From Megaustenia siamemsis (lineage: Eukaryota > Mollusca > Gastropoda > Stylommatophora > Ariophantidae): DNA of 64,000 bases. Numbering within the stretch: the first letter of the stretch is position 1; every line of letters begins with the position of its first letter. The notes under the pieces were generated by a model. That model saw only the letters and a list, made by a program, of their open reading frames with translations, was not told where the DNA came from and did not search any database. The position numbers and the translations under genes are program-made. Below are positions 881 to 64,000 of this stretch, in pieces. The DNA is taken from NCBI GenBank assembly GCA_032433765.1, contig JAVIAB010000092.1, positions 101,994,564 to 102,058,563 of the forward strand, read 5' to 3'.

Positions 881-2259
881 ATTCCCTCATTCCTTCTTCT
901 TCTTGGTCTACCTCTATACTAAAGGGAATTAAGCAAAGAAAATGCTCTATCTCAAACTGCTCAAGGAGAAATGATCACGCTGTGTGATCAACAAGTAAGC
1001 TTCAAAGAAAATATAAAGACTGCACTAAAGGACTTTTGCATTAGTAACTCAGAATAGAAGAGCGTGGCTGTTACCCATTCAATAGTATGTGGAGTATCTA
1101 CCAATGGTTTTGTTATATATTGGACAAATAAAATGATGAACTCTCTCCAGATGTAATAAAACCTCAAACTCTTATTTCCATTTCTTCCTTTTCGACTTGC
1201 TTCTAACCCTATAACAAACGTTACTTCTCAACTCAGGTTATCCTATTAAACACAGCTATTTCAATCTACGGTATACAAACATTTATTTCATTGTTTCATG
1301 TTTATTGTATCATTATTTGTAAATGTGTATTCTTATTCGGTAACTAATGTTTTTATGTTCCTAAGAGAAGAATTTTGACGAAACATCGATAATGATCCCG
1401 TGGTTTCTCCCTACAACTTTAAGCTACCATCACGCGTTGTTTATTTAGACTTTTTTTCTACTTTATTCTCCAGCCGTCATGCACTCGCTCCAAACTTTAA
1501 ATCTTTTAAGCTCTTGTTAATCCTCGTTAAATATAATCATTATCTGTCCTCTCACTCGTCCTTTTATTAAATAGTCAATAAATGTTATTACAGACGCGCT
1601 CGAATCTTTTAGTTTTTCTTATTATGTTCTGATCAGGTGCTGCGAGTTACTCTCGTTTCCGTCGCTAGACTAGTGCGTGTGATTAACGTGATTACTGTCT
1701 GAATCTTCTCTTGTATTCTACGCAGCTGAATTGTAGTGTGTCTTGCGGTCAATGATGCATCGTTCGTTGCTGGTCCAATGATAGGGCATTACCACAGTCT
1801 GCATGTCCATTGCACTGAAATAAAGAGAGTTCAAATAATAGTACTTAGCGGAAACATATCTCTACTCATGAGAAACTGATGATAGATTCTACATTTTGTG
1901 TTTAGTGGTTTCAAGTAAAAATATAACAGAATTTGTGTGTTTTTTAAACATAAAGGAAAAAAAAGATAGTTTAAAAGGCAAAAAAAACAACAATATTGAA
2001 ATAGTATTATTATTATTTTTATCTTGCCACCATAAATGTAAAATGTGTGAAATATTATATCCTCATAAATACACGGATTGACTATTTTCTTGACTGTAAC
2101 GTCACATTGAGTTCAACAGATGAAGCACTAAACAATTGGTCCAAAATTACACGTAGTCAATGGCCAAAGTTTGTAATTTGATAGCTGGCTGAACAATTCA
2201 GATCAACGTTTCATCTGAAATATTTTATCCTGATTTGTAAAGCTGTGAGTTCACATTTA
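881..2259. other. no recognisable gene
   Basis: AT-rich, frequent stops in all frames. The one small open frame near 1896-2081 is low-complexity and has no support as a gene. Confidence 0.4.
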
Positions 2260-2325
2260 TTGTAAAGATGCAAGCTAACAATTAAAGCTGCAAGCTAACA
2301 GTTGTAAAGCTGCAAGCTAACAGTA
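2260..2325. repeat. short tandem repeat, about 22 bp unit
   Basis: Three consecutive units containing 'gcaagctaacag', separated by 'aaagct' or 'ttgtaaagct'. Confidence 0.8.
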
Positions 2326-2420
2326 AGATTCCGAATTACATTGTTGTTATGAAGATCACTATAACGACAATGCCGAAACACTTGAGACTCGATTCTCACA
2401 AACAATGGACGACGCTAGAT

Positions 2421-3032
2421 ATTGGTTATTGGTTATGGAAGGCCTCGGTATCACTGCAAACGAATTAAAATCCATAATTGCTCAACTGCCCGTGGGAGTG
2501 GAATCATCCGAATTACTAACACATCTCCCAAACAAAGAAAGGTAACTGTAGTCCCCAACGTAGCAGTCTCAGCACACGCCAAAAGACATAAGGCGAAACC
2601 GCGCAGAAAGTGAACACAGCCAACTGTTCCCTGTCATACAATATTATCATTCATCGTAAACAAGCGGGATATCGAAACAGGAATCAAAACGCATGAGACA
2701 CACAGCTCACGGTGTGCACAGAGCACTTAACTCAGTAGCTCCTGCAACAAGCCGGAACCGGAATATGAGGAAACTGCAAGAAGGAACACTTTTCAGACAT
2801 AGCCTTCAATTGTTCCTGCCGCCTATCCACCATATACCATGGAAGTTCGCGTCCTCCCGAAAATGATGATCTTCGTAGCACTTCATGATGTTAGGCCATC
2901 GTTGATGACTCCAATTCCAAACATATAGACACACAGTGGTGGTAAGTTATCATTTCCACTCCAACAGAAGCCACCTGACCTGTAGTTAGTAAAACACAGA
3001 GAGAATATGATTTTGTGACCTTCACTGATTGA
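2421..3032 (-). mobile_element. 3'-anchored retroposon, copy A
   Basis: Shares its 3' end with copies at 28974, 33075 and 44372. All end at a variable run of the heptamer 'aaccaat' (seen here as 'ttggtta' on the plus strand). This copy carries the common 3' UTR and the last codons of the cysteine-rich protein found in the copy at 28974-30240, then homology stops near 3032. The differing 5' break points are the usual sign of target-primed reverse transcription. The 63-codon plus-strand frame at 2422-2613 lies antisense inside the UTR and is probably a shadow. Confidence 0.75.
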
Positions 3033-3379
3033 CTCATACCCTACGACTAATCGATATCTTCAACATACTTTATGAAGAAACAACATATATGTTAAATATT
3101 TTAAGCTTACCTAGGCGAAATGTAGCAGATATACGTGTGTGTATGTATTTTTTATGTATGTAGGCGTATGTATACACTGTATGTATGTATCTATATATAG
3201 GAGTATATATTGTCTGTTGTATTTAATACGTGTATTACGTCATTACAAAAAGTACGGACCTAATCCTTTATTTTCACAAATAACATAAAATATTGTAAAA
3301 AATCTTCAGAAATAGATTTCTGAAGTTTCCTGCCATTTTAAGAAGAAAAGTTTTAGCAACCTGACACCAGACGGGCTTC

Positions 3380-3610
3380 TTACATTTATTTGTATGTGTT
3401 TATTTGTTTGTATGTGTTTAATTATCTGTATGTATTTAATTATCTGTATGTGTTTAATTATTTGTATGTGTTTATTTGTATGGTTTAATTATATGTATGT
3501 ATTTAATTATCTGTATGTGTTTAATTATTTGTATGTGTTTATTAATTTGTATATGTTTGTATGTGCTTAATTATTTGTATATGTTTATTTTTTTATGTAT
3601 TTATTTATTT
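3380..3610. repeat. degenerate tandem repeat, TGTTTAATTATTTGTATG type
   Basis: About a dozen irregular units of 16-20 bp built from 'tgtttaatta' and 'tttgtatg'. Confidence 0.85.
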
Positions 3611-4227
3611 TTATCAAAGTGGCCACAGCTTCAAAATAGCAAATGAGTTGTGTTCGAGTGTTGCCCAGCTGGAGGTTATCAGCCTAAAGTGACTCACCAT
3701 CGTCTAGAAATGCGTTTGAGTCGGGCGTTGCCAGCGTTGATACTGTTAGCAGGCGATAACATCAATTTCAAAAAAGTATTACTAACTACTGATAAATCGC
3801 ACAATATGGGTCGATGCAGCTTTGAAGATAAACTGCTCGCTTAACTGTCTGTAGATATCTGCTTAGGAGTACAATAGGAGAGATCTTTTTTTTCCATTGA
3901 AACTTAATTCAAGGTAAGCGAAATTCGGTACATAGTCTTACTGGAGACGGACGACAAAGAGGCGGGCATAGTCTCATGTTAAAGTATAGCCATAAATGAG
4001 CCCACGCGTTTTCATTGACTTTCCTTGCAAAGTAGTCATTGTTGTAATCACTGTTTTATCTTCAAGGAAAAACAATACTACACGAGACTTTAGTACGTGG
4101 GAAACAAAAAAAATTGGTTTGGCACTGATAAGACAAAATTAGATCAAAATACAAACACAATGAACTTTCAACAGGTCAACGGTAGCTAAACTAGTTTTCT
4201 ATTATGTCTATCAAACCATTACGTTAC
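3611..4227. other. no recognisable gene
   Basis: No element recognised. A 64-codon open frame at 3650-3844 has no family resemblance I can see. Confidence 0.4.
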
Positions 4228-4229
4228 TA

Positions 4230-4334
4230 TAGTCCGTTCAGAAATTCATAATCACACCTGAATTAGTTTTGCGTGATAACCGCTTGTTATTTTGGTTTTA
4301 AATTTTTCATGCAATCTTAGAATATTGATGACGC
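4230..4334. repeat. left terminal inverted repeat
   Basis: Reverse complement of 6106-6210 with few differences; outer end TAGTCCGTTCAG, inner end near 'aatattgatgac'. Confidence 0.9.
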
Positions 4335-4644
4335 AAAGATTTGGGTATTTTTTTATTCCACAAAACACAACAGATTTTGCACATCAGCGAATTCCTTTGA
4401 TCTTTTATGACGATATCACACAAGTTGATTCAAATTGTAGAGTTTACAGTAATCGTGTTAAATTTTCCAGTTTACTGCAATTCTTGCCAGACGCGTATCT
4501 ACATAGTGCTTAATTGTGGGTGTTGTTCGTTATGTGTATTTGCAAACATGAATTCAATTGGTTACAATTAGTCTTGTCCTTCGGTCACCATTAGATCCCA
4601 GGACGTTCTAACTGCAGCTGGAATTGAATTCACATTAATTTTAA

Positions 4645-5770
4645 TCATTCCGAATCTGACGATTCCAAGAGGTTGATAATCATTACTGGCTGGACAAATA
4701 GTAATCCATCTCGTTTCCAGTACTCATCTTCCACCCGCAGCACATGTTCAACACACTTCTTCCAGAACAGAATGTCTATTTTTGAGAGAGACTCGCGTGT
4801 CAGAACTTCAACATCACACATTTTAAACGTCCTGTTCTGTTCTGCAACTTGTCCTTTGACGTGAGCCCAGACAAGTTCGAATGGATTAAGGTGCGCATGA
4901 TATGGAGGGAGTCGAAGAGAGGTGTGGCCGTATTTCTCAATGATTTTGTCAACATGGTACAAATTTTTCTTAATCGTATTCTTCACAAGTTGTAACAATT
5001 CGGGTTTTAAATATGTGTCGTCAAATTTGACATTTTCATTCGCAAGCCATGTCCTAATTTGCTCTTTTGTATTTGATGCAGTAGGCACTTTGTCTTCCTC
5101 TGATGCGACATTGTGGTATGATGCATTATCCATGACTATGCATGAAGGTCTCTGGTAAGGGGTTAAGGCAAAGAAATGCAAATGAATGCATAAAAATGCG
5201 AAGCTGCAGTAAAGCTGAATTCGAGGAAAAAATGAAAATAAAAAAATAAAAAATGGTATGTTAGAAGCTTTACGTGATTAGTAGACGACACAGATTCGAA
5301 TCTGTGTCGTCTACTAATCACGTAAAGCTTCTAACATACCATTTTTTATTTTTTTCAATTTTTCCATGAAGGTCTCTCCAGGATTGGTAAAAGATCGTTC
5401 TCCAACCAGTGCCTGAAAATGTTTCCATTCATTTCAGTATGGTAGTCCCTACCATCGGTACTTTTGATTGGAAAATAAGTCCCGCATCATGGACAAGGCC
5501 GTTTTCTGTCCTTCCAGCATGCGTTAATATAATGCGCTGGCCTTTGCTGCTCGGAATTGTTCTTTTGAGTTTGCCATTTACTGACTGCCATTCTTTAGGA
5601 TAGGTGTGGTGTGCGTTGACCCTGATTCGTCCAAATATACAAATATCATACCGTTCACTCCGCCGCTCACGGATCTGCCTCAGGTATTTGCTTCGAGCAA
5701 TGACCAAGTGTGGTTTTTCACAACTGATATAGTAAAACAGTAACTTTTTTGCATAGTTATAAATTTGCAT
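4645..5770 (-). pseudogene. DDE_3 transposase, broken
   Basis: Two minus-strand segments join into one transposase when the 211-bp insert is ignored. The upstream part (5770 to about 5378) has the VNAHHTYPKEW block, normally just after the first catalytic Asp. Here the usual acidic-E-T-W is replaced by GRIR, so that Asp seems lost. The downstream part (5153 to 4645) has IVMDNASYHN with the second Asp, then PPYHAHLNPFELVW with the third acidic residue, then VKGQV and a C-terminal helix region. The family uses this domain to cut and join at TA sites. I see no helix-turn-helix DNA-binding region upstream, so the N-terminus is probably deleted. Inactive by several lesions. Confidence 0.88.
5154..5364. 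repeat. 211-bp insert with perfect 116-bp palindrome
   Basis: The insert splits the transposase coding sequence and is flanked by identical 13-bp copies of CATGAAGGTCTCT (5141-5153 and 5365-5377), a target site duplication. Within it 5240-5297 and 5298-5355 are exact reverse complements with no spacer, centred on GATTCGAATC. An imperfect match continues a few bases further out. The remaining 86 bp next to the left duplication are not palindromic. A 13-bp duplication fits retroposition or a transposase making long staggers; the origin is unknown. Confidence 0.9.
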
Positions 5771-6105
5771 TTCGAACTCATTGTAATTTAGATATAAATG
5801 TTGGTATTTAAAGTCAACAAATTGTCTACTGAGTCTTCACAAAATTAATAAAGATATGCCTTCCCTTCGGTAATTAATGCCAAGGCCGTGGTGCGTCATG
5901 TCGTTCAATAACAATTCAGTTTTGTGCACGGGATTTCCTGAAGTTAGTGTTTCTGCAATAGCCAAACTATTTTATGTGAACGACCGCACCAAATTAATGT
6001 ATATATCCTAAAATGGTGTCAAATTGGAACAGGGTGAATTTAATATACCTAAAGAATAAAACTTTTAAACTAGATCAAATTTCTCAGAGCAAAAAATATT
6101 TATAT

Positions 6106-6210
6106 AACGTCAACAATATTCTAAGATTGCATGGAAAATTTAAAACCAAAATAACAAGCGGTTATCACTCAAAACTAATTCAGGTGTGATTATGAATTCT
6201 GAACGGACTA
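6106..6210. repeat. right terminal inverted repeat
   Basis: Mirror of 4230-4334; outer end CTGAACGGACTA followed by TA. Confidence 0.9.
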
Positions 6211-6279
6211 TAACACTCAGCTACTCACACACTGACTTTAACAAAATAACATTGGAAAGGTGTTATCTAAGGAAACTAA

Positions 6280-7875
6280 AGTAATAAATCATCAGCATCT
6301 TTGAGTGCCGTCTCCGTATAGAAGGTTGGCTACCATGGAGCGCCATTCCGCTCTGTCTCTGCTTTGATGGTGCAGGTTTTCATAGGCTGACCTATCCGTC
6401 TTTTCATTGTACTCATTCACGATGCGTCTTGGTCTGCCTCTTTTACCTTGTATTTTCCATTACAAGATTACTTTTAATATGCTGTTGTGTCTTTTAACAT
6501 GTCCCAAACATTTCATTTTTCTTGTTTGAATTGTATTTAGTAGTTCTCTTTTCATTTTTATTTGTTTTAAGACATAGTTTTTTTTTCTCTCCGTCCAATT
6601 CTACCTATTCTTCTATATATTCACATTTCAAAGGCTTCAATTTTCTATTCTGTTTTGTTGTCCAGCTTCCACGTTTCTGCACCATACATGAATGTTGACA
6701 CGATGTAACATTTTGCTATTCTTAGTTTCAACCCTGATGTTAATCGTTTGGATATTAATATATTTTCATGACATTAAAATTACGTTTTGCCATTCCTGTT
6801 CTTTGTTTATTTCAGTTGTGCATTTTCCATCACTGGTTATAGTACGCCCAAGGAAGTTGTAGCTCTGAACTGTCTTCAGGTCTATTACTTCAATTTTGAT
6901 ATACACTTGTAGGTTTTGAGTATTTTCTTTGTTTTTGATCATAGTTTTAGTCTTTTTATTCATATCCAATCCATATTTTTTATTTGTTATGTTTATTTCA
7001 TTAAGTAATGTTGTAAATCTTTAGGATTTTCTGCTAGTAGTACAATATCATCAGCATATCTTAGGTTATTGATTATCTTTCCATTATTGTTTAGGCCTGG
7101 CATCTCAGTGATGTTTTTAAAGACTTGCTCAGTGTCTAGATTGAACAAGCTTGGTGATAGGATGCGTCCCTGTCTTTCTCCCCTTTATATATCAATGAGT
7201 GTAGAGTTCTCTTTGTTATATTTTATTATTGCTGTTTGCTTCCAGTATAAATTACATATTAGTAGTATGTCAGTGTCATCTAGACATACTACTTTGGAGA
7301 ATTCTATGAATCAGGCATATATTGTTTTGTTATTTCTGTGTAAAAAAAAAAGTAAAGTACCCCCGTCACGCCAAGTGGAATCGTATAGGGAATATGGTAT
7401 TAGTGACCATAAATTTTACAGACCTTCGGCACATGATTTTTGGGGTAATGTGGTCAGTATTACGCCCGTGCTGCTTTACTTTCTCAGAAAAATACCCGGT
7501 ACCCATTTAAGGCTGGGTGAACCCGGAAGCCGTCGATTGGGATCGAACCCTACACCTTGTCCTTTGTAGTCCAGTTCACTAGCCACTGAGCTATCGCGGC
7601 TCCTTATTTCTGTGCACTTTTCGATTACTGTCCTCATACAGAATTACGGCTTCTTTTGTCCCACTATTTTTCCTAAATCCAATTGCTGCTCATCTAATTT
7701 AATATTGATTTTGTTCTGAATACTTTCTACATAACTTTTAGCAAGATTGTTGTTACATACCTTATTGTGCATATTGTTCTAAAGTCATTGCATTCAACTG
7801 CACAATTCTTTTTTAGGCAATGCAACGAAAATTGATGTTTTTAGTTCCTTTGGTGTGTATCCTGTATTGTATCAG
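6280..7875 (-). mobile_element. RTE-like LINE fragment, split by a SINE
   Basis: Read on the minus strand, pieces match the reverse transcriptase at 36225-37150: the segment facing the catalytic region near 7020-7160, the block with KTKTMIKNKEN near 6950, the YNFLGRTITSDGKCTTEI block near 6835, then the C-terminal tail toward 6290. The SINE at 7341-7603 interrupts it; upstream RT sequence resumes at 7604 and runs to about 7875. Several frameshifts and stops; not functional. Confidence 0.85.
7341..7603 (-). mobile_element. tRNA-derived SINE, family S, nested in LINE
   Basis: The minus strand starts GAGCCGCGATAGCTCAGTGG (pol III A box) with a B box matching GGTTCGATCCC about 45 bases on, then a conserved body with GGCACGGGCGTAATAC and a 3' end CGTGACGGGGGTACTTTACT followed by T. 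An 11-bp target duplication TTATTTCTGTG flanks it (7330-7340 and 7604-7614). Confidence 0.92.
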
Positions 7876-8984
7876 TGATAAATACCACACATAAAGTGTG
7901 GCAGTGTTGTGAAAACATAACTTTGATACATAAGATCTACCCGTAATGTTGTATGAACATGTAAGGCACAGTGAGTTCACCACGCTGAAAGTCCAAATTA
8001 AAATGTGTTTTATTTTAATGTATTTAAATGTATTTATTTGTTTTATTTTAATTTTATTTACTTTGTTGTAAGATAAAATTAAGATATAAAAAAGCTCATG
8101 AAAATTCATTGGACAAATAATTGTATTGATAATTTGAGTGCTCTAAAAAAAGACATTAAACGATCTGCTTAAGGCACTTAGTAACTATATTGGTTTTCTG
8201 TGAACGATAGTTGAATTAATGGGAACCGGTTTAGTGTTGCGAATGAATGTGTCATAATGAAATGTGAAAGCTGATTGGTTCACTTCCTGCCCTGTTGCGT
8301 TTCTTTATGAGGCGAACGATGAGTCCCAAACACGACATTGTCAGATGAGGGTCAGTGGAGGTTATCAGCTTGAGTAGCAATCTGGACTGTCTTACCAAGT
8401 AATTATCTTGTCACGCATAGTGTGGGTGTTTGTATTTGTTTCAATTAGACCGTCTATCTGGCATCATCTTCTTTACATCTTGATTGAAGATGCATCGGCA
8501 AAACACTCGTGGTCGAGCCGGCGTGAGATGTCCTCACGGGTAGCAACAAAGTTCCTCCAATTCGGATGGGCCCTTGGCCTTCTGTTGCAAAAATGTCTAT
8601 GTCAGACCCACTCTGTTCATCTCTATTTTACCCCATCAGATTGACCTTGATCTGCTTCCCTGTCATCTTCTATCTGGAGCTCACTGCAAAGCAGTGTTTG
8701 CGATTCTTACAAAGTTAACAGCCAGTACAGCTCAATTGTATGTAAGGGTTCTCTGTACGTCATCGTGGCATCTTCATTGCAGCTTTCATTTTTTTTACTA
8801 ATCTTATATGTCACAAAATATTGTAAGAATTATCTTCAGGCAACTTGTTCAAATACCAGTTTTAAAGTGTCCTTTATTCTCAGTTTTTCCCAAGAATGTA
8901 AACATATTTACATGCATATCAACACATACACAAATATATATTTACATACATACACACATATACACATATAAATGTTCTTATGGA
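7876..8984. other. no recognisable gene; CA/TA-rich end
   Basis: The 8405-8800 stretch is less AT-rich than its surroundings and has moderately long open frames on both strands, but I recognise no domain. Near 8900-8975 there is an 'acatacaca' type microsatellite. Confidence 0.35.
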
Positions 8985-8989
8985 CATAC

Positions 8990-9246
8990 ATAAAGTAGTA
9001 AAGTACGCCCGTCACGCCAAGTGGCGTATAGGGAATATGGTGTTAGTGACCATATATTTTACAGACCTTCGGCACATGATTTTTTGGGTAATGTGGTCGG
9101 TATTACGCCCGTGCCGCTTCACTTTTCCTGAAAAAAATCAGGTATCCATTAAAAGTTGGGTGAACCCGGAAGCCGTCGGTTGGGATCGAACCCTACCTCT
9201 TGTCCTTTGTAGTCCAGTTCACTAACCACTGAGCAATCGCGGCTCC
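8990..9246 (-). mobile_element. tRNA-derived SINE, family S
   Basis: Full-length copy of the family at 7341-7603; the tRNA-like head is at the right end, the 3' tail at the left. Possible target duplication of ACATACAT on each side. It sits directly against the 3' end of the next LINE. Confidence 0.9.
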
Positions 9247-46264: not shown

Positions 46265-46880
46265 TCTTAACTTCATCATATCATCATCATGTGCCATACC
46301 GGTCGGCATAGGTGATCATGTCCCTCCACAATCTTCTATCTACAGTTCATCGTATCAGTTCTGTTGTTGACTGTTTTCCATGCCATGACACCAAGCTATC
46401 CAGTATTTTCTCTCTTTCTTGTCCGCGATCTCTCCGTTCCTTTTATTTTGCTAGTTGTAACCAAGTATTCCAAATTTCCTCTTCTCATGATGTGCCAGAA
46501 AAATGTTGATTGCTTCTTTCTGATGTTTTTAAGAGCTCCCTTTTTGTGTTGGCCTCTTTGAGAACTTCCTCATTGGTCTTTTTATCTGTCCAGGGAACTT
46601 TCAACATTCTTCTGAGAAATCCAATCTCTGTGGCGTCTAATCGTCTTTTCATTTGTTTGTCTACTGTCCATGATTCGCTTCCATTGGTCAGAATTGGTTC
46701 TATATAGCACCGATGAACTCTCTTTCTCATTTTTATTGACATAGATTTGTTGCATAAGATATTTTTCATTTTCTGAAATGCTATTTTGGCCTGAGCTATT
46801 CTGCTTTTTATTTCTGTGGTGCATCTCCCATCTGATGTTATTATTGTGCCCAAGTATTTGAAACGTTGCACTTGTTTCAG
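46265..46880 (-). mobile_element. RTE-like LINE, C-terminal part
   Basis: Nearly identical in structure to 58363-59085: tail with the (TCA)n 3' end at 46265-46290, then FLRRMLKVPWTDKKTNEEVL, NGSESWTVDKQMKRR, SIKMRKRVHRCYIEPIL and FKYLGTIITSDGRCTTEI going upstream. The copy breaks off at 46880, where a tandem repeat starts. One long open stretch (46485-46880) suggests a recent insertion. Confidence 0.9.
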
Positions 46881-47080
46881 ACAAGACTTGTTCTCAGACT
46901 TGTTTCCATAAACAATAATCACACAAAAACACCTTAACTTGTACCCTTCCATAAACAATAATCACGTTAGAACACCTTATCTTATACCTTTCCATAAACA
47001 ATAGCCACGTTAAAAATCACCTTATTTTATACCCTTCCATAAACAATAATTAAGTAAAATCACTTCTTATACCGTTCCAT
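46881..47080. repeat. tandem repeat, about 43 bp unit
   Basis: Four units with 'tttccataaacaataatcac' and 'caccttat'. Begins exactly where the LINE homology stops. Confidence 0.9.
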
Positions 47081-55565: not shown

Positions 55566-55775
55566 TCATATTCCATTGTTGCAGGCTAATAACGTGAGAT
55601 TGAAGCTATTGTTACTGGCTAACAGTGTATGACTGAAGCAAGTGTTGCAGGCTAACAGTGATAGATTAAAGCAATTGTTGCAGGCTATCAGTGTAAGATT
55701 GAAGCAATTGTTGCAGGCTATCAGTGTAAGATTGAAGCAATTGTTGCAGGCTATCAGTGTAAGATTGAAGCACCT
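55566..55775. repeat. 33-bp minisatellite
   Basis: Six units of GCAGGCTATCAGTGTAAGAT then 'tgaagcaattgtt'. Period 33 keeps a minus frame open (NCFNLTLIACN repeats). Confidence 0.95.
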
Positions 55776-56449
55776 CAAGAGTGTGCACTATTAACCAAAA
55801 ATGAACTACTTTTTCGGTTATACTCATACTTGAAATGTGCTAATCAGGTACCTTTTTTAACACCTGCACGTGTTAAACGTGAATAATAACTCGTGTATCT
55901 CGAGGGCTAGTAAACAAAGTGTTAACACAGTTCTCATTTGAATTTCATATTTTTCCACTTAGTTGCCTCTACGTACTGTAGTCTCTGCGCCTGAAATAAA
56001 CAAGGCAATTATATCTCATGTTCTTTTATAGCTTTTCTTTATATTCAGTAAATAAACACTGAATGAAAGCGTTGATTATACCCAGATTGATCACATTTGA
56101 CTTGTAACATGTTTAGGATCCATTAGAGGTTCTTAAAGAGATTAGACTTTTATTGAAGAAATCGCAGCTCTGTTCTAGGGTTATCACTGTGCTCAATACT
56201 GTGACCAGACTGGCTAAAGTCTGTTAAGTATGTTCCTGTTGAAACGATGGTGGTTAATTATTGCATTAGGGATTTTTTCCCCTCTCTCTTTTGTTGTAGC
56301 TTGTTGAAGTGTCAAGATAATTTAATGGTATTCGGTGTACTTTGAGTAATGCATTAAAGAGAATGTGTTAGAATATGGGGTTCTTAAAGTGTGGTCTGTG
56401 TCATTTGCAGTTCAAGGTTTGTTTGATGTGAGAAAAAGAAAAATAGTAA
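55776..56449. other. no recognisable gene
   Basis: Nothing recognised. Confidence 0.4.
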
Positions 56450-57110: not shown

Positions 57111-57227
57111 ATAAAATGTGTTTCATGAAAAGACTAGTCTCCTATAGCGGTAAGTGTAGTATGTAAGACACATTTTCAAGCCTCTGATATAATTGTAAGC
57201 GACACTTTCAGATAAAGCTGGGACTAC

Positions 57228-57642
57228 ACAAGTAGTTAGGAATTACTGAATACGTGCTCCAAAGGTTCGGCCACATTTTATATATGTCCAATATAACAAG
57301 TGTCTGAACATTTCATAATGTGGTCGCACATTTTTTTTTGCTCGGCGTTCGGCTGGAATGGTGCTTTTTTTTTTGTTCGACTGGTTCCGGTCGTGACCCG
57401 TCGACCCGTGTCCCGGTGATCCGCGCTGGCTCGGCTGTGGGCAGGATCGGCGACCCGTGACGTCTCGTGATCGGTCGGCGTCTCCTGATGTAAACACTCG
57501 TGATTATCCTATTTTTATGGATTTTAAATGCTGTAGCGGTGAGCTTGTTAGGGGGGAACTAGGAAAAATTAAAACGCTTGTTCAAAAAAAGGGAAACATG
57601 CTGACGCGTGTTATCTCTCCTCACTTTATTCTTTATAGGTTT
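57228..57642. repeat. left inverted repeat
   Basis: Reverse complement of 62706-63118 with roughly nine in ten bases alike. Contains a GC-rich centre (57380-57480, CGACCCGTG motifs) in an AT-rich setting and a smaller internal hairpin (GGCCAC...GTGGTC near 57268-57328). The match stops abruptly at both sides. Confidence 0.93.
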
Positions 57643-58291
57643 TTAGTATTAGTCCTTCACTGTAACACGTGTTTGAATAAATAATTAGATAAAATACCTC
57701 CTTTAACTTGTATCACAGAGACATTATACCCCTGCATACCCTCATCAGCATCATCAAGTACCGGTTGGTGTAGAGTGATCATCCACAACTTTCGATCTCT
57801 AAAGAAATAATAAAAGTGAGAGTTTTAAAGTGTTATTCTTAAATAAAACATGCAGCCCGCCCGTATAAGACTGGGTCATGAACAGGCCAGAACTTACATC
57901 GTAGGCCTCTATCAGCTGAACACATGACAAGTAACGCGTATATGATTGGGTTCATTGACTACCGGGGTGACGGCGAAGTGCTGTAAGGCGAATGTTTATC
58001 TGTCAAATCTATTAGCGTGTCGCGGTTCTAAAACTTGGGGAAAGCTGTATTACAGGGGTGAATATGTTGTGTGTCATGTGTTTATATTTTGGTGAAAGGA
58101 GTACCTGACTCAATGGTTATCTCGGGTGTAAGTGTGGTTGATTATTATCCCTTAAGGTATCTGTGTGCTGATATTCATAAGACCAGGTGTGGAAATTTAA
58201 ATAACGTGTTGGTTGTGATGATTCTAAAAATGGAGAAAAGGAGTGTTTTCCCTTTTGATTTTCGTCTATCATCATTACCATGACCACCCAC

Positions 58292-58296
<5 letters not shown>
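57643..58296. other. interior of the element, no clear gene
   Basis: A LINE-tail trace lies at 57740-57800. An ATG at 57849 opens a short frame (MQPARIRLGHEQARTYIVGL) that ends after about 25 codons, and another open frame of 70 codons is at 58071-58283. Neither is recognised. These may be remains of other genes of the element. Confidence 0.3.

Positions 58297-58362
<66 letters not shown>
58297..58362. repeat. (CT)n microsatellite
   Basis: A pure CT run of about 66 bases immediately before the 3' end of the LINE to its right. Confidence 0.98.
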
Positions 58363-58364
<2 letters not shown>

Positions 58365-59085
58365 ATCATTCATCATGTGCCATACCGGTTGGCGTAGGCG
58401 ATCATGTCCCTCCAGAATCTTCTATCTACAGTGCATCGTATCAGTTCTGTTGTTGACTGTTTCCCATGCCATGACACCAAGCTATCCAGTATTTTCTCTC
58501 TTTGTCGTCCGCGATCTCTCTTTCCCTTTATTTTGCCAGTTGTAACCAAGTATTCCAACTTTTCTCTTCTCATGATATGCCCAAAAAAATTGATTGCTTA
58601 TTTCTGATGTTTTTAAGAGCTCCCTTTTTGTGTTGGCCTCTTTGAGAACTTCCACCTTGGTCTTTCTAGCTGTCTAGGGAACTTTCAATATTCTTCTGAG
58701 AAATCCCAACTCTGCGGCATTAAATCGTCATTTCATTTGTTTGTCTATTGTCCATGATTCGCTTCCATAGGTCAGAATTGGTTCTATATAGTACCGATGA
58801 ATTCTCTTTCTCATTTTTATTGACATATATTTGTTGCATAAGATATTTTTCATTTTCTGAAATGCTATTTTGGCCTGAGCTATTCTGCTTTTTATTTCTG
58901 TGGTGCATCTCCCATCTGATGTTATTATTGTGCCCAAGTATTTGAAACGTTGCACTTGTTTCAGATTAGTCTCGTTTATTTTTATGCTGCATGATGGTGA
59001 TGATTGTTTCTTCGATATAACCATTACTTCTGTTTTCTTACTATTCAGACTGAGACCTTTCATGTTCTCTCTCTCTTCACATTCA
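58363..59085 (-). mobile_element. RTE-like LINE, C-terminal part
   Basis: Well preserved: 58573-58373 encodes the tail MRREKLEYLVTTGKIKGKRD with WHGKQSTTELIRC. Upstream, 59063-58728 encodes KGLSLNSKKTEVMVISKKQ, FKYLGTIITSDGRCTTEI and YGSESWTIDKQMK. The two halves are in different frames. 5'-truncated near 59085, inserted inside the TIR-bounded element. Confidence 0.9.
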
Positions 59086-59296
59086 AGTTAAATCAAGTCA
59101 AATAAAACACATACTTTCTTTATTTAATTTCACAGCTTTTTTTATTAATACAGCGGAGAACAGATATTTGAAAATATATTACTGTCCGGTTGATGAATGT
59201 ATTAATTTTAACCGTTTGGACTTCCTCCCTCCTATTTTGGTGGTACTGTCTATTTGTGTTAAATGTCTATCAAACACAGGTGCATAGGAACGTTGA

Positions 59297-59893
59297 TTAA
59301 CCTTTAAACACAACCACCTCAATTTTGACAAAACCTTGATCAAAGATGGAATAGGTAATTGGTGACTCTGATGAATCACCCGGGGCATCCATGCTGACTG
59401 CGGGATCTTTCGTCTAGTTAATAAGAGTGTGGTTCTGGTTAACAAGAGGTGGCGTGTAGTTGAGGTTCTAGTTAACAAGAGGTGGCGTGTAGTTGAGGTT
59501 CTGGTTAACAAGAGGTGGCGTGTAGTTGAGGTTCGGGTTAACAATAGCTGGCGTATTGTTGAGGTTCTAGTTAACAAGAGGTGGCGTGTAGTTGACGTTA
59601 GCATAAGCAGACAAAATCTCCTCTCGCATCTCAACTAGCGTTATAAGTTCCTCTCTCGAGAGTGTTATTCCAGTTCTGGTAGGAAACTTAAAAAAACTCT
59701 CACCGCTACATGTCCTTATGTTTATCAATGGTCTATTACGAAAAACACATATTGAGACTGCCTTAACGCCATCCTTTGACAATGGAATTATATTCTCATT
59801 GCCACGTGACATGAAAATGCGCTGATCACAAAAATAAAACGAAGTTGGAATATTCACGCTACACGACTCCATATTCAAAGAAAACAAACACAA
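59297..59893 (-). pseudogene. PC4-like protein with 11-residue repeats
   Basis: From the ATG at 59893 (or the second Met at 59872) there is a compact domain with KAVSICVFRNRPLINIRT, then FPTRTGITLSREEL. This matches the PC4 (p15) single-stranded-DNA-binding fold: a strand, a PL-xIR strand, then P-x-x-x-GIxLS before a helix. PC4 proteins bind single-stranded DNA as dimers and occur in eukaryotes and some large DNA viruses. A tail of five 11-residue repeats (NYTPPLVNQNL type) follows, then about 40 residues to a TAA at 59297. Three in-frame TAG codons (59567, 59468 and 59414, plus-strand starts) interrupt the tail at a position where other repeat units keep a sense codon. A minus-strand AATAAA lies at 59119-59124. 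Head-to-head with the ATPase. Confidence 0.6.
59425..59600. repeat. 33-bp coding tandem repeat
   Basis: Five units with 'gttaacaagaggtggcgtgt' on the plus strand. In phase with the minus-strand reading frame (11 codons). Confidence 0.95.
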
Positions 59894-60329
59894 ACCACTC
59901 AGTAACAGACGCTGGTTAGCTGTGTGTATGCATATACACTGATAGACTGAGCTTTATACCTCACTGTAGTCGGGTCGAAGACCGTCTATTTATAGTAACT
60001 AATGCAATACGTTATCAGGCGTGTTGAGATATGTTCAGTGATGGCCCCCCACTCCGGAAGTGACCCCTCGGACTGAGCCAAGGGCTGATGTGTGGGAAAT
60101 CCCGGCTAACCTGGCCGATGATGTGTGAAATAATTGTGTATGTATGTGTGTGTGTGTGTGTGTGTAACAATTTGGTCTCAGGTAACGCGTACTGAGACTA
60201 AGAAACCCCGAAGTGTTTATATGGGTTGTAGTTTTTAAAATAGGTGTGAGTTAAAGAGGGAAACCTCGCGTGCTGACCTGAAATCACGTGTTGTCACTGT
60301 TACTCAAATCCCATTCAGCGTCGTCGAGG

Positions 60330-60367
<38 letters not shown>

Positions 60368-60404
60368 TTTAGGTGGTATAATCACTAAAGTTTCATTTGT
60401 GAGG
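59894..60404. promoter_or_regulatory. divergent intergenic region
   Basis: Lies between two divergent genes. Contains a (TG)n run at 60138-60163, a (TA)n run at 60331-60364, and TATA-like sequences ('tatttatagta' at about 59987 and 'ctttatacc' near 59950). Likely a shared promoter zone, by position only. Confidence 0.35.
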
Positions 60405-61022
60405 ATGGATCCCAGATGGAAATACCCATTCACAGCTCTGATAGCCGGGCCTACAGGGTGTGGGAAAACGGTATTTGTGCAAAATTTTATACAGAAGCTT
60501 CTCGAGTTAGCTGTCCCCGTACCGGAGGAAGTTATATGGCGTTATGGTGAATGACAACCAATATACGAGACTATGGGGTCAGTGAGATTTATCGAGTGTC
60601 TACCAGACATCGATAAATTTGAAGGTGGTAAGAAGAGAAGACTGATCGTTATCGATGGCTTGATGTCGGAGACGGACGAGAGAGTAACAAAATTATTCAC
60701 CAAAGGTAGTCATCACAGAGATATTAGTGTGATGTACATTGTGCAAAACCTATTCGGAAAGAATAAGGAACATCGAACCATAAACCTCAATACACACTAT
60801 TTAGTCCTTTTCAAGAACCCGAGAGACGGAAGTCAAATAATCAATCTGACTAAACAAATGTACCCACGAGAGGTGGGGTACCTCTAAGATAGTTTTAAGC
60901 ACGCGACAGCGTCTCCTCACTGTTACTTGTTGGTTGATCTTCGTCAGGATACACCGGATCATCTTAGGTTGAGCACAAAAACATTCCCAGGGGAGAGACA
61001 AATCGTCTACGTCCAAAAGTAA
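60405..61022 (+). pseudogene. virus-type packaging ATPase, two nonsense codons
   Basis: A P-loop NTPase of about 205 codons. It starts MDPRWKYPF, an upstream Met at 60288 being unlikely because a TA microsatellite lies between. Walker A is GPTGCGKT (near residue 15), then a Walker B-like strand RRLIVIDGLMSETD, then KGSHHRDISVMYIVQNLF and a conserved LNTHYLVLFKNPRD block. A C-terminal YLLVDLRQDTP and a basic end follow. The layout matches the short FtsK/HerA-type packaging ATPases that move DNA into capsids in polinton-like and other DNA viruses. In-frame TGA at 60552-60554 and TAA at 60885-60887 interrupt it with no frameshift, so it was lost by point mutation. It ends at TAA 61020-61022, where LINE sequence begins. 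Confidence 0.75.
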
Positions 61023-62705
61023 CAAAAATGTGCGACGAATCACTTAAACGATAATATGATAGAGCGGTTAACAAATGGCATCATGAGAGCTGCTAAGGAA
61101 TCCATTCCTAGAGAAGCAAGAAGAAACTACAAGCCATACTGGAGCAAGGAAATACAAAGACTAGAGGAGAAGCTGGACTCTGCCAGAGAACTAGCTGCAA
61201 CAACACACAGCAAAGAGAGCAACATTGCCTTCAAAGCAGCCTCGGCCAAATACAGACGTGAGGTCAGAATATCAGCAAGACAGAGCTGGATAGACAAAAC
61301 AGAGAGCCTTAATCTAGACAAAAATGGTCATAAACTGCGAAAGCTCTGAGTGACGAAAACAACTGCCGACCTCCAATATCATTAATACACAATCAGAACA
61401 TCCTCACAGACAAAAGAGCAGTAAATCTACTGATAGAGACTACAAAAACATTAGTAGAATAAACATTCCAATAGACAAACAGAAAGCTGCAAGGCGAAAC
61501 AACCAAGATGCAAAACACATGCTTTTAGCACCTAAAGAGTATCAGACGACCATCTTTACCCCAACTGAATTAGATGTTGCCTTCAAAGTATTGAAGCTCA
61601 AAAGTTCCCCTGGTAAAGATAGAATCTCCAACGAAATGCTCCTAAATCTTGGACAGAAAGCCAAGAGCCAGCTTCTAAGGATAATAAAGTCTAGCTGGAA
61701 GAGAGGTCATGTGCCGGCAATCTGGAAAGAAGCTATTATGGTGCCCATCATCAAGCGTGGAAAAGACCTACTAGACCCAAGTAGCTATAGACCAATTAGC
61801 CTACTGAGCTTCCTGAGTAAACTCACGGAAAGGCTGGTTAACAGAAGACTTATGTGGCATTTGGAGACAAAACAACAAATCATACCATAACAAAGTGGCT
61901 TCCGTCAGCACAGATCAACTGAAGACCTCGTCACCTACATTGCACAGGAAATAGAGGATGCTCTACAAGAAAAGTAGCACACTGGCAGTGTGGGTCGACA
62001 TGGAGAAGGCTTTTGATAGGGTTTGGCAAGAACAAGTTTTAAAGAACAAGCTTTTTAGACTTGGCATCCAGGATCGTTTATACAATTTGGTCTCTCAATA
62101 CCTTCATGATAGAACGACCAGAGTACAAGTTCAATGTCAACTAAGTAAGAAGGTCTCTATCGAACAAGGTGTCCCACAAGGCGGAGTCTTGTCCCCAACA
62201 CTCTTTTTAATTTTCATAAATGACATCGTAAAGGACATTCCACCCAGAATACACTCAGCAATATACGCAGATGTTATGGACTCGTGAGGAAAGTAAGTCG
62301 GTGGCGGGACCCAGGATGCCAGATGTCCTAGGTGAACTTGAAAAAATGGACGAACACCTGGTTCTTACCAATCAACGAAAAAAAAAAACAACATATATAA
62401 TTTTCAGCCTATCAAGAAACACACTCTCTGCAAACTTGAAGATAAAAGACCATACACTCCCTATTGACCAAAACCCAACATATCTTGGTGTCACCATGAA
62501 TCGCAGAATGACTTGGCAACATCAGATAGACAGAGCAAGGAAAAAAGCCAGAAAGCGAACAAATATTATGAAGAAATTGGCAGGAACGGACTGGGGGGCA
62601 GACAGCAATATTTTGAAAAGACTATACGTAGGAAGAGTCAGACCAGTTCTAGAGTATGGAGTCACAGCCTGGGCTATGGCTTCCAAATCACACATTAGCA
62701 AAATT
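61023..62705 (+). pseudogene. jockey-like LINE, RT region
   Basis: Plus-strand frames in order: a pre-RT region with YKPYWSKEIQRLEEKL (61056-61349), then RT with LKSSPGKDRISNEMLL, SSYRPISLLSFLSKL, GFRQHRSTEDLV, WVDMEKAFDRVW (first catalytic Asp), EQGVPQGGVLSP, and a damaged catalytic box IYADVMDS (a YADD in most relatives). Then YLGVTMNRRMTW and LEYGVTAWAMAS. Three frameshifts or stops separate the blocks. No endonuclease domain (5' truncation) and no RNase H. The 3' end stops exactly where the right inverted repeat begins, which is unusual for a LINE. Confidence 0.88.
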
Positions 62706-63118
62706 AACCTATAAAGAATAAAGTGAGGAGAGATAACACGCGTCAGCGTGATTCCCTTTTTTTTGAACACGCGTTTTAATTTTTCCTAGTTCCCCCCTAA
62801 CAAGCTCACCGCTACAGCATTTAAAATCCATAAAAATATGATAATCACGAGTGTTTACATCAGGAGACGCCGACCGATCACGAGACGTCACGGGTCGCCG
62901 ATCCTGCCCACAGCCGAGCCAGCGCGTATCACCGGGTCACGGGTCGACGGGTCACGGCCGGAACCAGCCGAACAAAAGAAAGCATAATTCCAACTGAACA
63001 CCAAACAAAAAAATGTGCGACCACATTATAAAATGTTCGGACACTTGTTATATAGGGCATATATAAAACGTGGCCGAACGTTTGGCGCAGTAATACAGGA
63101 ATTCCTTACTACTTGCGC
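62706..63118. repeat. right inverted repeat
   Basis: Reverse complement of 57228-57642; inner end 'aacctataaagaataaag', outer end 'actacttgcg'. Confidence 0.93.
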
Positions 63119-63608
63119 ATGTCATCTCTAGAAGTCACCTGTCTCTCACCCAACTATTTTTTCAGATACCTGGATACTTTTCTATCGAAGTAACTAAATC
63201 ATGGAAACATCCAGTGGAACGGAAAAAATTATTTAAAAGTCATAAAGAAAATAACAGTATGTGGCTGTTACTAGTTGTTATAAACGATTTTGAACATCTG
63301 AAAATGAAAGTGGCCATGAACATGGAGTTCTTATTGGAGAAACCTTGGAAATATTGTCTGATTGATGGAGAACTTGACACTTAATGTTTTACAAAATCAG
63401 TGTTAAAATAATATGTTCAGCTTTCATTTGTTTAACTGTACGAATATTTATATAAAATATGATATGAGTGTTATACTGTTTGTTGGTAATGACAAACTTA
63501 TTTGGTCTTAAATGGATTATTGAAAGTAGCAACGTTGAAAGGTGGTCAAAGCTGAAATATTTACATATTTATTGCAAGCAATCTAATTCTTCTAACGATC
63601 AGCACAAC
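63119..63608. other. no recognised gene; possible terminal exon
   Basis: A pyrimidine tract ending TTTTTTCAG at about 63163 is followed by about 71 open codons to a TAA near 63384 (frame starting IPGYFSIEVTKSWKHPVERK). I recognise no domain; it could be a chance frame. Confidence 0.3.
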
Positions 63609-64000
63609 AGAAGTGTGCACTAGCTTGTAGAGAAAGCACATACTAGCTTGTAGAGAAAGCACATACTAGCTTGTAGAGAAAGCATACACTAGTTTGTAGA
63701 GAAAGCATACACTAACTTGTAGAGAAAGCATACACTAGCTTGTAGAGAAAGCACATACTAGCTTGTAGAGAAAGCATACACTAGTTTGTAGAGAAAGCAC
63801 ATACTAGCTTGTAGAGAAAGCATACACTAGTTTGTAGAGAAAGCACATACTAGCTTGTAGAGAAAGCATACACTAGTTTGTAGAGAAAGCACATACTAGC
63901 TTGTAGAGAAAGCATGCACTAGCTTGTAGAGAAAGCATATACTAGCTTGTAGAGAAAGCATACACTAGTTTGTAGTGAAAGCACATACTAGCTTGTAGAG
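63609..64000. repeat. 23-bp minisatellite, continuing beyond the window
   Basis: About 17 units of TAGCTTGTAGAGAAAGCACA then 'tac', with 'cttg'/'tttg' and 'cacatact'/'catacact' variants in partly alternating order. Runs off the end of the window. Confidence 0.97.

What the first reader, a model, noticed from the sequence alone, without database searches (positions are those of the whole stretch)
57228..63118. TIR-bounded virus-derived element with packaging ATPase and PC4-like gene
Seen: inverted repeats of about 415 bp flank a region with a packaging-type ATPase (GPTGCGKT, VIDGLMSETD, LNTHYLVLFKNPRD) facing away from a PC4-like gene. Known: such ATPases package DNA in capsid-forming elements, and long TIRs mark polintons and related elements. 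Inference: this is a decayed, internally deleted member of a capsid-encoding DNA element lineage. A PC4-like single-stranded-DNA-binding protein as its divergent partner is unusual. The alternative is two separate inverted insertions of a 415-bp element around an older viral fragment.
Basis: partly seen in the sequence, partly recalled or inferred. Interest (0 to 1): 0.85.

Follow-up and report, generated by a model that had tools for sequence, protein, structure and literature searches.

The report
Broken copy of polymerase-less Maverick relative
This stretch is a decayed, shortened copy of a small virus-like mobile element that carries its own capsid genes and integrase but no recognisable DNA polymerase, and near-intact relatives of it occur at many places in the same genome.

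Summary
An element at 57231-63113 has ~410-bp inverted arms (92% identical), AGTAGT ends and a weak 6-bp target duplication (TACACA/TGCGCA, 4 of 6). Between the arms lie a broken PC4-like gene and a broken packaging ATPase, facing apart; the rest was replaced by a LINE fragment. In the same 2.59-Gb genome the arm occurs in 12 head-to-head pairs, so it is a true terminal repeat. Relatives, 8.8-8.9 kb where both ends were measured, carry PC4-like protein, ATPase, integrase with chromodomain, a minor-capsid candidate, a pVI-like protein, a double-jelly-roll capsid protein and an adenain-like protease, with 6-bp target duplications and Maverick-type (AGT)2 ends. No polymerase match (E<0.5) was found in the 18 copies examined. 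A young subfamily is abundant: the 97 best-scoring capsid places (of 4393 candidates) are full length, 93 without a stop. Maverick-type polymerase B matched at six other places, one in an ordinary 19.8-kb Maverick of another lineage. The window thus holds a dead fragment of a polymerase-less Maverick relative that probably replicates with a polymerase supplied in trans. New variant of a known kind; replication is inferred, not shown.

The parts
57225..57230 (.). left copy of the degenerate target-site duplication (TACACA; right copy TGCGCA, 4 of 6 identical)
   Evidence: most sister copies with located ends have 6/6 or 5/6 matches
57231..57641 (+). left terminal inverted repeat, the part still matched on the right (begins AGTAGT)
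57642..59274 (+). rest of the left terminal repeat as defined by sister copies (about 1.3 kb in all), interrupted by a LINE fragment at about 58337-59066
58337..59066 (-). inserted LINE fragment with a CT run; not part of the element
   Evidence: gap in the match to sister copies; 92.6% copy at 46271-46892
59182..59872 (-). PC4-like (ssDNA-binding fold by family) gene, broken: 3 stops and a changed frame in the tail; the tail holds a 33-bp repeat at 59428-59632
   Evidence: Pfam PF02229; tblastn with the L021 protein, 71%; repeat
60405..61022 (+). packaging-type ATPase gene, broken by in-frame stops at 60552 (TGA) and 60885 (TAA); 88% identical to the open 205-residue relative
61028..61050 (+). 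first codons of the next gene (small protein), cut off by the LINE piece
   Evidence: comparison with L021 by eye
61051..62705 (+). LINE fragment that stands where sister copies have the integrase, capsid and protease genes and the inner right terminal repeat; its left edge is approximate
   Evidence: RVT_1 matches; gene maps of sister copies
62706..63113 (-). right terminal inverted repeat (ends ACTACT)
63114..63119 (.). right copy of the degenerate target-site duplication (TGCGCA)

Best explanation
The window holds a dead, internally deleted copy of an integrating virus-like element of about 8.8-8.9 kb, related to Mavericks/polintons, that has lost, or never had, its own DNA polymerase. How it most likely works: its integrase (rve core plus chromodomain) inserts a linear genome with 6-bp target duplications [ends and duplications shown; enzyme action inferred from family]. 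The ATPase packages that genome into capsids of the double-jelly-roll protein, matured by the adenain-like protease [fold and families shown; particles not shown]. The (AGT)2//(ACT)2 ends suggest extrachromosomal, protein-primed copying, with the PC4-like protein coating displaced single strands and a polymerase supplied in trans, most likely by an ordinary Maverick in the same genome [inferred]. The window copy lost the genes right of the ATPase when a LINE inserted and a deletion followed [inferred from the junctions]. The confidence given is for the identity of the element; the trans-polymerase step alone I put near 0.45.
Against: The window copy itself has only two broken genes and a 4/6 target duplication. 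No particle, transcript or excised DNA was seen. Scored places are the best-scoring ones, so their intactness is not representative. The polymerase in trans is unproven: the ordinary Maverick at C137:9133274-9153120 ends AGTAGATG, not AGTAGTG, and its integrase is only 24% identical. PC4 similarity rests on Pfam (about 1e-7) and weak PDB hits (0.44-0.62); a single-sequence model of the window piece failed (pLDDT 36). dN/dS exceeded 1 in 3 of 19 comparisons. L011 (1/6 in register, a 5-bp repeat one base off) and L018 (3/6) lack a clean 6-bp duplication. Four scans of IMG/VR found no free relative.
Confidence: 0.82

Rival explanations
1. The 8.8-8.9-kb relatives are high-copy deletion derivatives of a polymerase-bearing master Maverick of the same subfamily that was not detected.
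For: Searches score only the best candidates, so copies can be missed. Six places with polymerase B exist, and only one of them was read in full.
Against: The other genes are kept in order and mostly open in young copies. No polymerase match below E 0.5 in 18 copies, and the six polymerase places lie far from the listed capsid and ATPase places. The one such element read is a different lineage.
Confidence: 0.2
2. The element moves as a plain transposon: capsid genes are relics or serve another purpose, and no particles form.
For: No free viral relative was found in four scans of IMG/VR. High copy number.
Against: 93 of the 97 scored capsid genes have no stop (best-scoring places only). dN/dS is below 1 in 16 of 19 comparisons of capsid, minor-capsid candidate, ATPase and integrase genes. 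The whole morphogenesis set (ATPase, protease, capsid) is kept.
Confidence: 0.2
3. Replication uses host polymerases, or an unrecognised replicase among the small genes, rather than a Maverick polymerase in trans. (This rival concerns the replication step only and is compatible with the identity of the element.)
For: The element is abundant while polymerase B places are few. The small genes have no Pfam match above cut-off.
Against: The (AGT)2 ends are the kind linked to jumping-back in protein-primed copying (PMC8097293 discussion passage). The genes not assigned to a family are small (about 90-265 residues).
Confidence: 0.4
4. Two separate inverted insertions of a 415-bp repeat around an old viral fragment.
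For: 16 of 28 places (12 pairs and 16 singles) of the repeat were unpaired, though partners may be unscored.
Against: 12 head-to-head pairs, several around the same genes, with shared outer 6-bp duplications.
Confidence: 0.02

Closest known systems
Maverick/Polinton (vertebrate Mavericks of PMC8097293, passages)
   Same: Terminal repeats, 6-bp target duplication, (AGT)2//(ACT)2 ends, rve integrase, packaging ATPase, adenovirus-type protease, double-jelly-roll capsid
   Different: No protein-primed polymerase B found; 8.8-8.9 kb against 12.7-24.6 kb; a PC4-like gene beside the ATPase. Copy number looks higher (93 stop-free capsid genes scored, against at most 38 intact whole elements there), but the two counts are not of the same thing
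Adintovirus
   Same: Integrase with C-terminal chromodomain (feature named in PMC11071296 passage; found here)
   Different: No polymerase B with OTU-like domain found. The same paper mentions animal genomes with adenovirus-class capsid genes that lack both polymerase B and integrase, a partial precedent
Polinton-like viruses (PLV) and Tlr1
   Same: Capsid elements that mostly lack polymerase B; Tlr1 keeps an rve integrase (PMC11071308 passage). Protist elements without a detectable polymerase, and thousands of capsid genes in Trichomonas, are reported (PMC10120064 passages)
   Different: No helicase, primase or other replication protein was recognised here; Tlr1 encodes a large helicase protein; protist elements are 14-40 kb
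F54H12.2-like proteins of invertebrates and a fish
   Same: The capsid gene belongs to this family by homology (among 120 listed, the only names besides 'hypothetical protein' are F54H12.2 or F54H12.2-like, from Trichonephila twice, Dendronephthya and Erpetoichthys)
   Different: Called uncharacterised there; the capsid fold is assigned here. Whether others have assigned it in print I could not establish

Membership tests
Maverick/Polinton | terminal inverted repeats with conserved end motif | tested here: met
   AGTAGT at both ends in the window and in the sister copies with located ends, except L014's right end, which reads AATAGT; motif per PMC8097293
Maverick/Polinton | 6-bp target-site duplication | tested here: met
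   9 of 15 copies 6/6, 3 of 15 5/6, window 4/6, L018 3/6, L011 1/6 in register; 3 of 18 copies had no located ends
Maverick/Polinton | rve-type integrase | tested here: met
   in relatives, E 7.6e-13; absent from the window copy
Maverick/Polinton | packaging ATPase | tested here: met
   the full-length relative is below every Pfam cut-off shown except RNA_helicase-, A32- and IVa2-like weak hits (best E 7.8e-4), so A32-like or IVa2-like is not resolved
Maverick/Polinton | adenovirus-type cysteine protease | tested here: met
   Peptidase_C5 2.7e-4 (21.1 bits, cut-off 21.3), ASFV S273R chain 3.8e-4, H/Q/C motifs present
Maverick/Polinton | double-jelly-roll major capsid protein | tested here: met
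   (model of homologue P0122, 66% identical to the L021 protein)
Maverick/Polinton | single-jelly-roll minor capsid protein | tested here: inconclusive
   253-265-residue gene in that position, no Pfam match; not folded
Maverick/Polinton | protein-primed DNA polymerase B | tested here: not met
   no Pfam polymerase in the genes of L021 and L023 scanned; no match below E 0.5 in 18 copies with this genome's own polymerase frames; six places elsewhere
Maverick/Polinton | size 12.7-24.6 kb (vertebrate intact elements) | tested here: not met
   8873 bp (L021) and 8839 bp (L023); range from PMC8097293 passage
Adintovirus | polymerase B with OTU-like domain | tested here: not met
   as above
Polinton-like virus | other replication protein in place of polymerase B | tested here: not met
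   no polymerase or primase family, and no helicase family above cut-off, in the genes scanned; an unknown replicase is not excluded

The most novel reading that the evidence does not exclude
A self-integrating, capsid-encoding DNA virus lineage of animals that carries no replicase: a satellite that keeps protein-primed ends and its own integrase and capsid but borrows the polymerase of ordinary Mavericks (or of the host), with a PC4-like protein beside the ATPase, and that has outnumbered its presumed helper in the genome.
Probability: 0.35. Interest if true: 0.86.

Novelty: new variant of a known kind. Interest (0 to 1): 0.7.

Why it matters
The vertebrate Maverick survey seen here in passages (PMC8097293) took its candidates from co-located integrase and polymerase B, so elements like this would be missed by design. 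A polymerase-less, capsid-encoding lineage with many open copies would be a counterpart, in a multicellular-type genome, of helper-dependent virophages. It also gives a likely function to the uncharacterised F54H12.2-like proteins: double-jelly-roll capsid proteins.

Tried and rejected
Rejected: two independent insertions (paired copies); an ordinary polymerase-bearing Maverick.

Led nowhere: PC4 piece in the protein database, 1 candidate, no hit. PHROGs, no clear hit. Four IMG/VR scans with the ATPase piece, capsid piece, capsid alignment and ATPase alignment, no relative. Single-sequence fold of the PC4 piece, pLDDT 36. ATPase against PDB sequences, weak P-loop hits only (best 0.0037). Paper searches; apart from their listings I saw only passages of PMC11071308, PMC11071296, PMC13282606, PMC10120064, PMC8097293, PMC3671162 and PMC6431247. 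In these I saw no PC4-bearing, polymerase-less Maverick of animals; subscription papers are mostly not held, so this is weak. A pattern count of the capsid gene (and repeats), a PC4 search and a search for other copies of the LINE/arm junction did not complete.

Weaknesses: picked a wrong record for the window (empty tblastn, blank WIN row); redone. The six young copies were chosen from a best-scoring list.
Full report
What is in the window. The ends are AGTAGT at 57231 and ACTACT at 63113, flanked by TACACA and TGCGCA. Inside lie a PC4-like gene on the minus strand (59182-59872; Pfam PF02229 above its cut-off) and a packaging-type ATPase gene on the plus strand (60405-61022). Both are broken. 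A LINE fragment with a CT run interrupts the left arm, and a second LINE fragment (about 61051-62705) stands between the ATPase and the right arm.

The arms are terminal repeats of a family. In the window's own genome (2.59 Gb, 155 contigs) the 415-bp arm gave 46 matches, with 40 of 230 candidates scored. 27 rows form 12 head-to-head pairs 2-9 kb apart, the window being one; 16 places were unpaired. The other eleven pairs were fetched. Their arms run to about 1.3 kb in L009 and L012. Outer flanks show duplications: L010, L012, L013 and L014 match 6/6 (L014's right end reads AATAGT), L009, L015 and L016 5/6, the window 4/6, L018 3/6, L011 1/6 in register (a 5-bp repeat one base off); L017 and L019 had no located ends.

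Full gene set. Older relatives L009 and L010 (8.4 and 8.2 kb) still carry, in pieces, integrase, capsid and protease genes. A search with the second ATPase piece scored 150 places of 2539 candidates, the window among them, all at 90% or more and without a stop in the matched stretch. L021-L025 match all ten genes, some with a stop or frame break. Five of the six, L021-L024 and L026, have perfect 6-bp duplications; L025's ends were not resolved. Lengths between located ends are 8873 bp (L021) and 8839 bp (L023). Gene order in L021 and L023: PC4-like (minus), then on the plus strand ATPase, a small protein (90-108 residues), a 121-154-residue protein, integrase with rve core (7.6e-13) and chromodomain (2.7e-6), a ~115-residue protein, a minor-capsid candidate (253 residues in L023, 265 in L025, only its last 154 open in L021), a pVI-like protein (named by eye), the capsid protein and an adenain-like protease. 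In L023 the ten genes leave 441 bp uncovered over 2104-9115, and the catalytic motifs of integrase, protease and ATPase are present.

No polymerase. None of the L021 and L023 genes scanned matches a polymerase family, and helicase-type hits are the weak P-loop ones of the ATPase, below cut-off. Polymerase B (PF03175) gave 12 matches at six places in the genome, 91 of 466 candidates scored; the same search rang in 0 of 14 control genomes. None lies near a listed capsid or ATPase place. Polymerase frames from two of those places, used as tblastn queries on the 18 copies, found nothing below E 0.5, while finding themselves. The one such element read runs 19.8 kb at C137:9133274-9153120, with 196-bp arms (97.4%), ends AGTAGATG and the 6-bp duplication AAGTTG. 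It has its own integrase and a Pox_A32-type ATPase and only 24% integrase identity to this family. So an ordinary Maverick exists here, but of another lineage.

Abundance and age. With the L021 capsid protein, 97 places were scored of 4393 candidates: all full length at 98-100% identity, 93 without a stop. These are the best-scoring places, so the share of intact genes is not representative, and the number of loci behind the candidates is unknown. 28 places picked from both lists have an ATPase-capsid spacing of 3793-3929 bp. dN/dS between near-intact copies was below 1 in 16 of 19 comparisons and above 1 in 3 (copies with stops or broken alignments in a gene were left out of that gene). Over the outermost 144-346 bp the arms of L021-L025 are 96.5-100% identical; over longer stretches with tandem repeats 86.7-98.8%. 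The eleven older copies give 86-95%. The window copy belongs to the older subfamily: its arm is not alignable over most of its length to the young arm, though both begin AGTAGT.

Mechanism. Shown: ends, duplications, gene families, capsid fold, abundance, absence of a recognised polymerase in the copies read. Inferred: integration by the encoded enzyme, packaging, protein-primed copying with a polymerase from elsewhere. Two observations favour a linear replicating form. The (AGT)2//(ACT)2 ends are the commonest vertebrate Maverick motif, linked by those authors to the jumping-back step of protein-primed copying (PMC8097293, passages). And palindromic copies occur: L026 has 3.65-kb arms, a perfect 6-bp duplication and AGTAGT at both ends; further opposite-strand neighbours within 10 kb, read by eye from the listings, occur twice more among ATPase places and three times among capsid places, and these were not fetched. 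Fold-back forms of this kind are expected of strand-displacement copying (general knowledge).

Membership. It works like a Maverick, but two features of that family were tested and not met (polymerase B; size), so I do not file it as one. It shares the chromodomain integrase named for adintoviruses (PMC11071296 passage) but no polymerase of theirs was found. Polinton-like viruses mostly lack polymerase B but encode other replication proteins (PMC11071308 passage); none was recognised here. Precedents limit the novelty: Bellas et al. note that many protist elements lack a detectable polymerase and count 4,841 capsid genes in one Trichomonas genome (PMC10120064 passages), and PMC11071296 mentions animal genomes with adenovirus-class capsid genes but no polymerase B or integrase.

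Limits. Copy counts are lower bounds. No other animal genome could be searched. Whether the window's LINE-containing form itself spread (junction search) did not complete.

Noticed in passing
L019 (G000:C8:55553075-55559711): A pair of related arms grown to ~2.6-kb inverted arms in which none of the L021 proteins was found: a foldback-like derivative.
   Followed up: partly
L026 (G000:C51:10334600-10344500): Palindrome of the left half of the young element (PC4 and ATPase in both 3.65-kb arms) with a perfect 6-bp duplication.
   Followed up: partly
G000:C137:9133274-9153120 (L034, L035, L037): Ordinary 19.8-kb Maverick with an open 1025-residue polymerase B frame, 6-bp duplication AAGTTG, and a ~2.6-kb minisatellite inside.
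   Followed up: partly
59428-59632: 33-bp (11-codon) repeat in the tail of the PC4-like gene; the L021 relative has a TPPVVN-rich tail there.
   Followed up: no
63550-64000: Tandem array of a 23-bp unit running to the window end.
   Followed up: no
55566-55805: Another 33-bp minisatellite with an open frame.
   Followed up: no
4645-5181: Transposase-like open frame on the minus strand, Tc1/mariner-like by eye only.
   Followed up: no
BFVD R9XLG5: The capsid model's best viral-library match is an uncharacterised protein filed under Cotesia sesamiae Mombasa bracovirus (33% identity, E 5.2e-29, TM only 0.40), suggesting such an element in a wasp viral segment.
   Followed up: no
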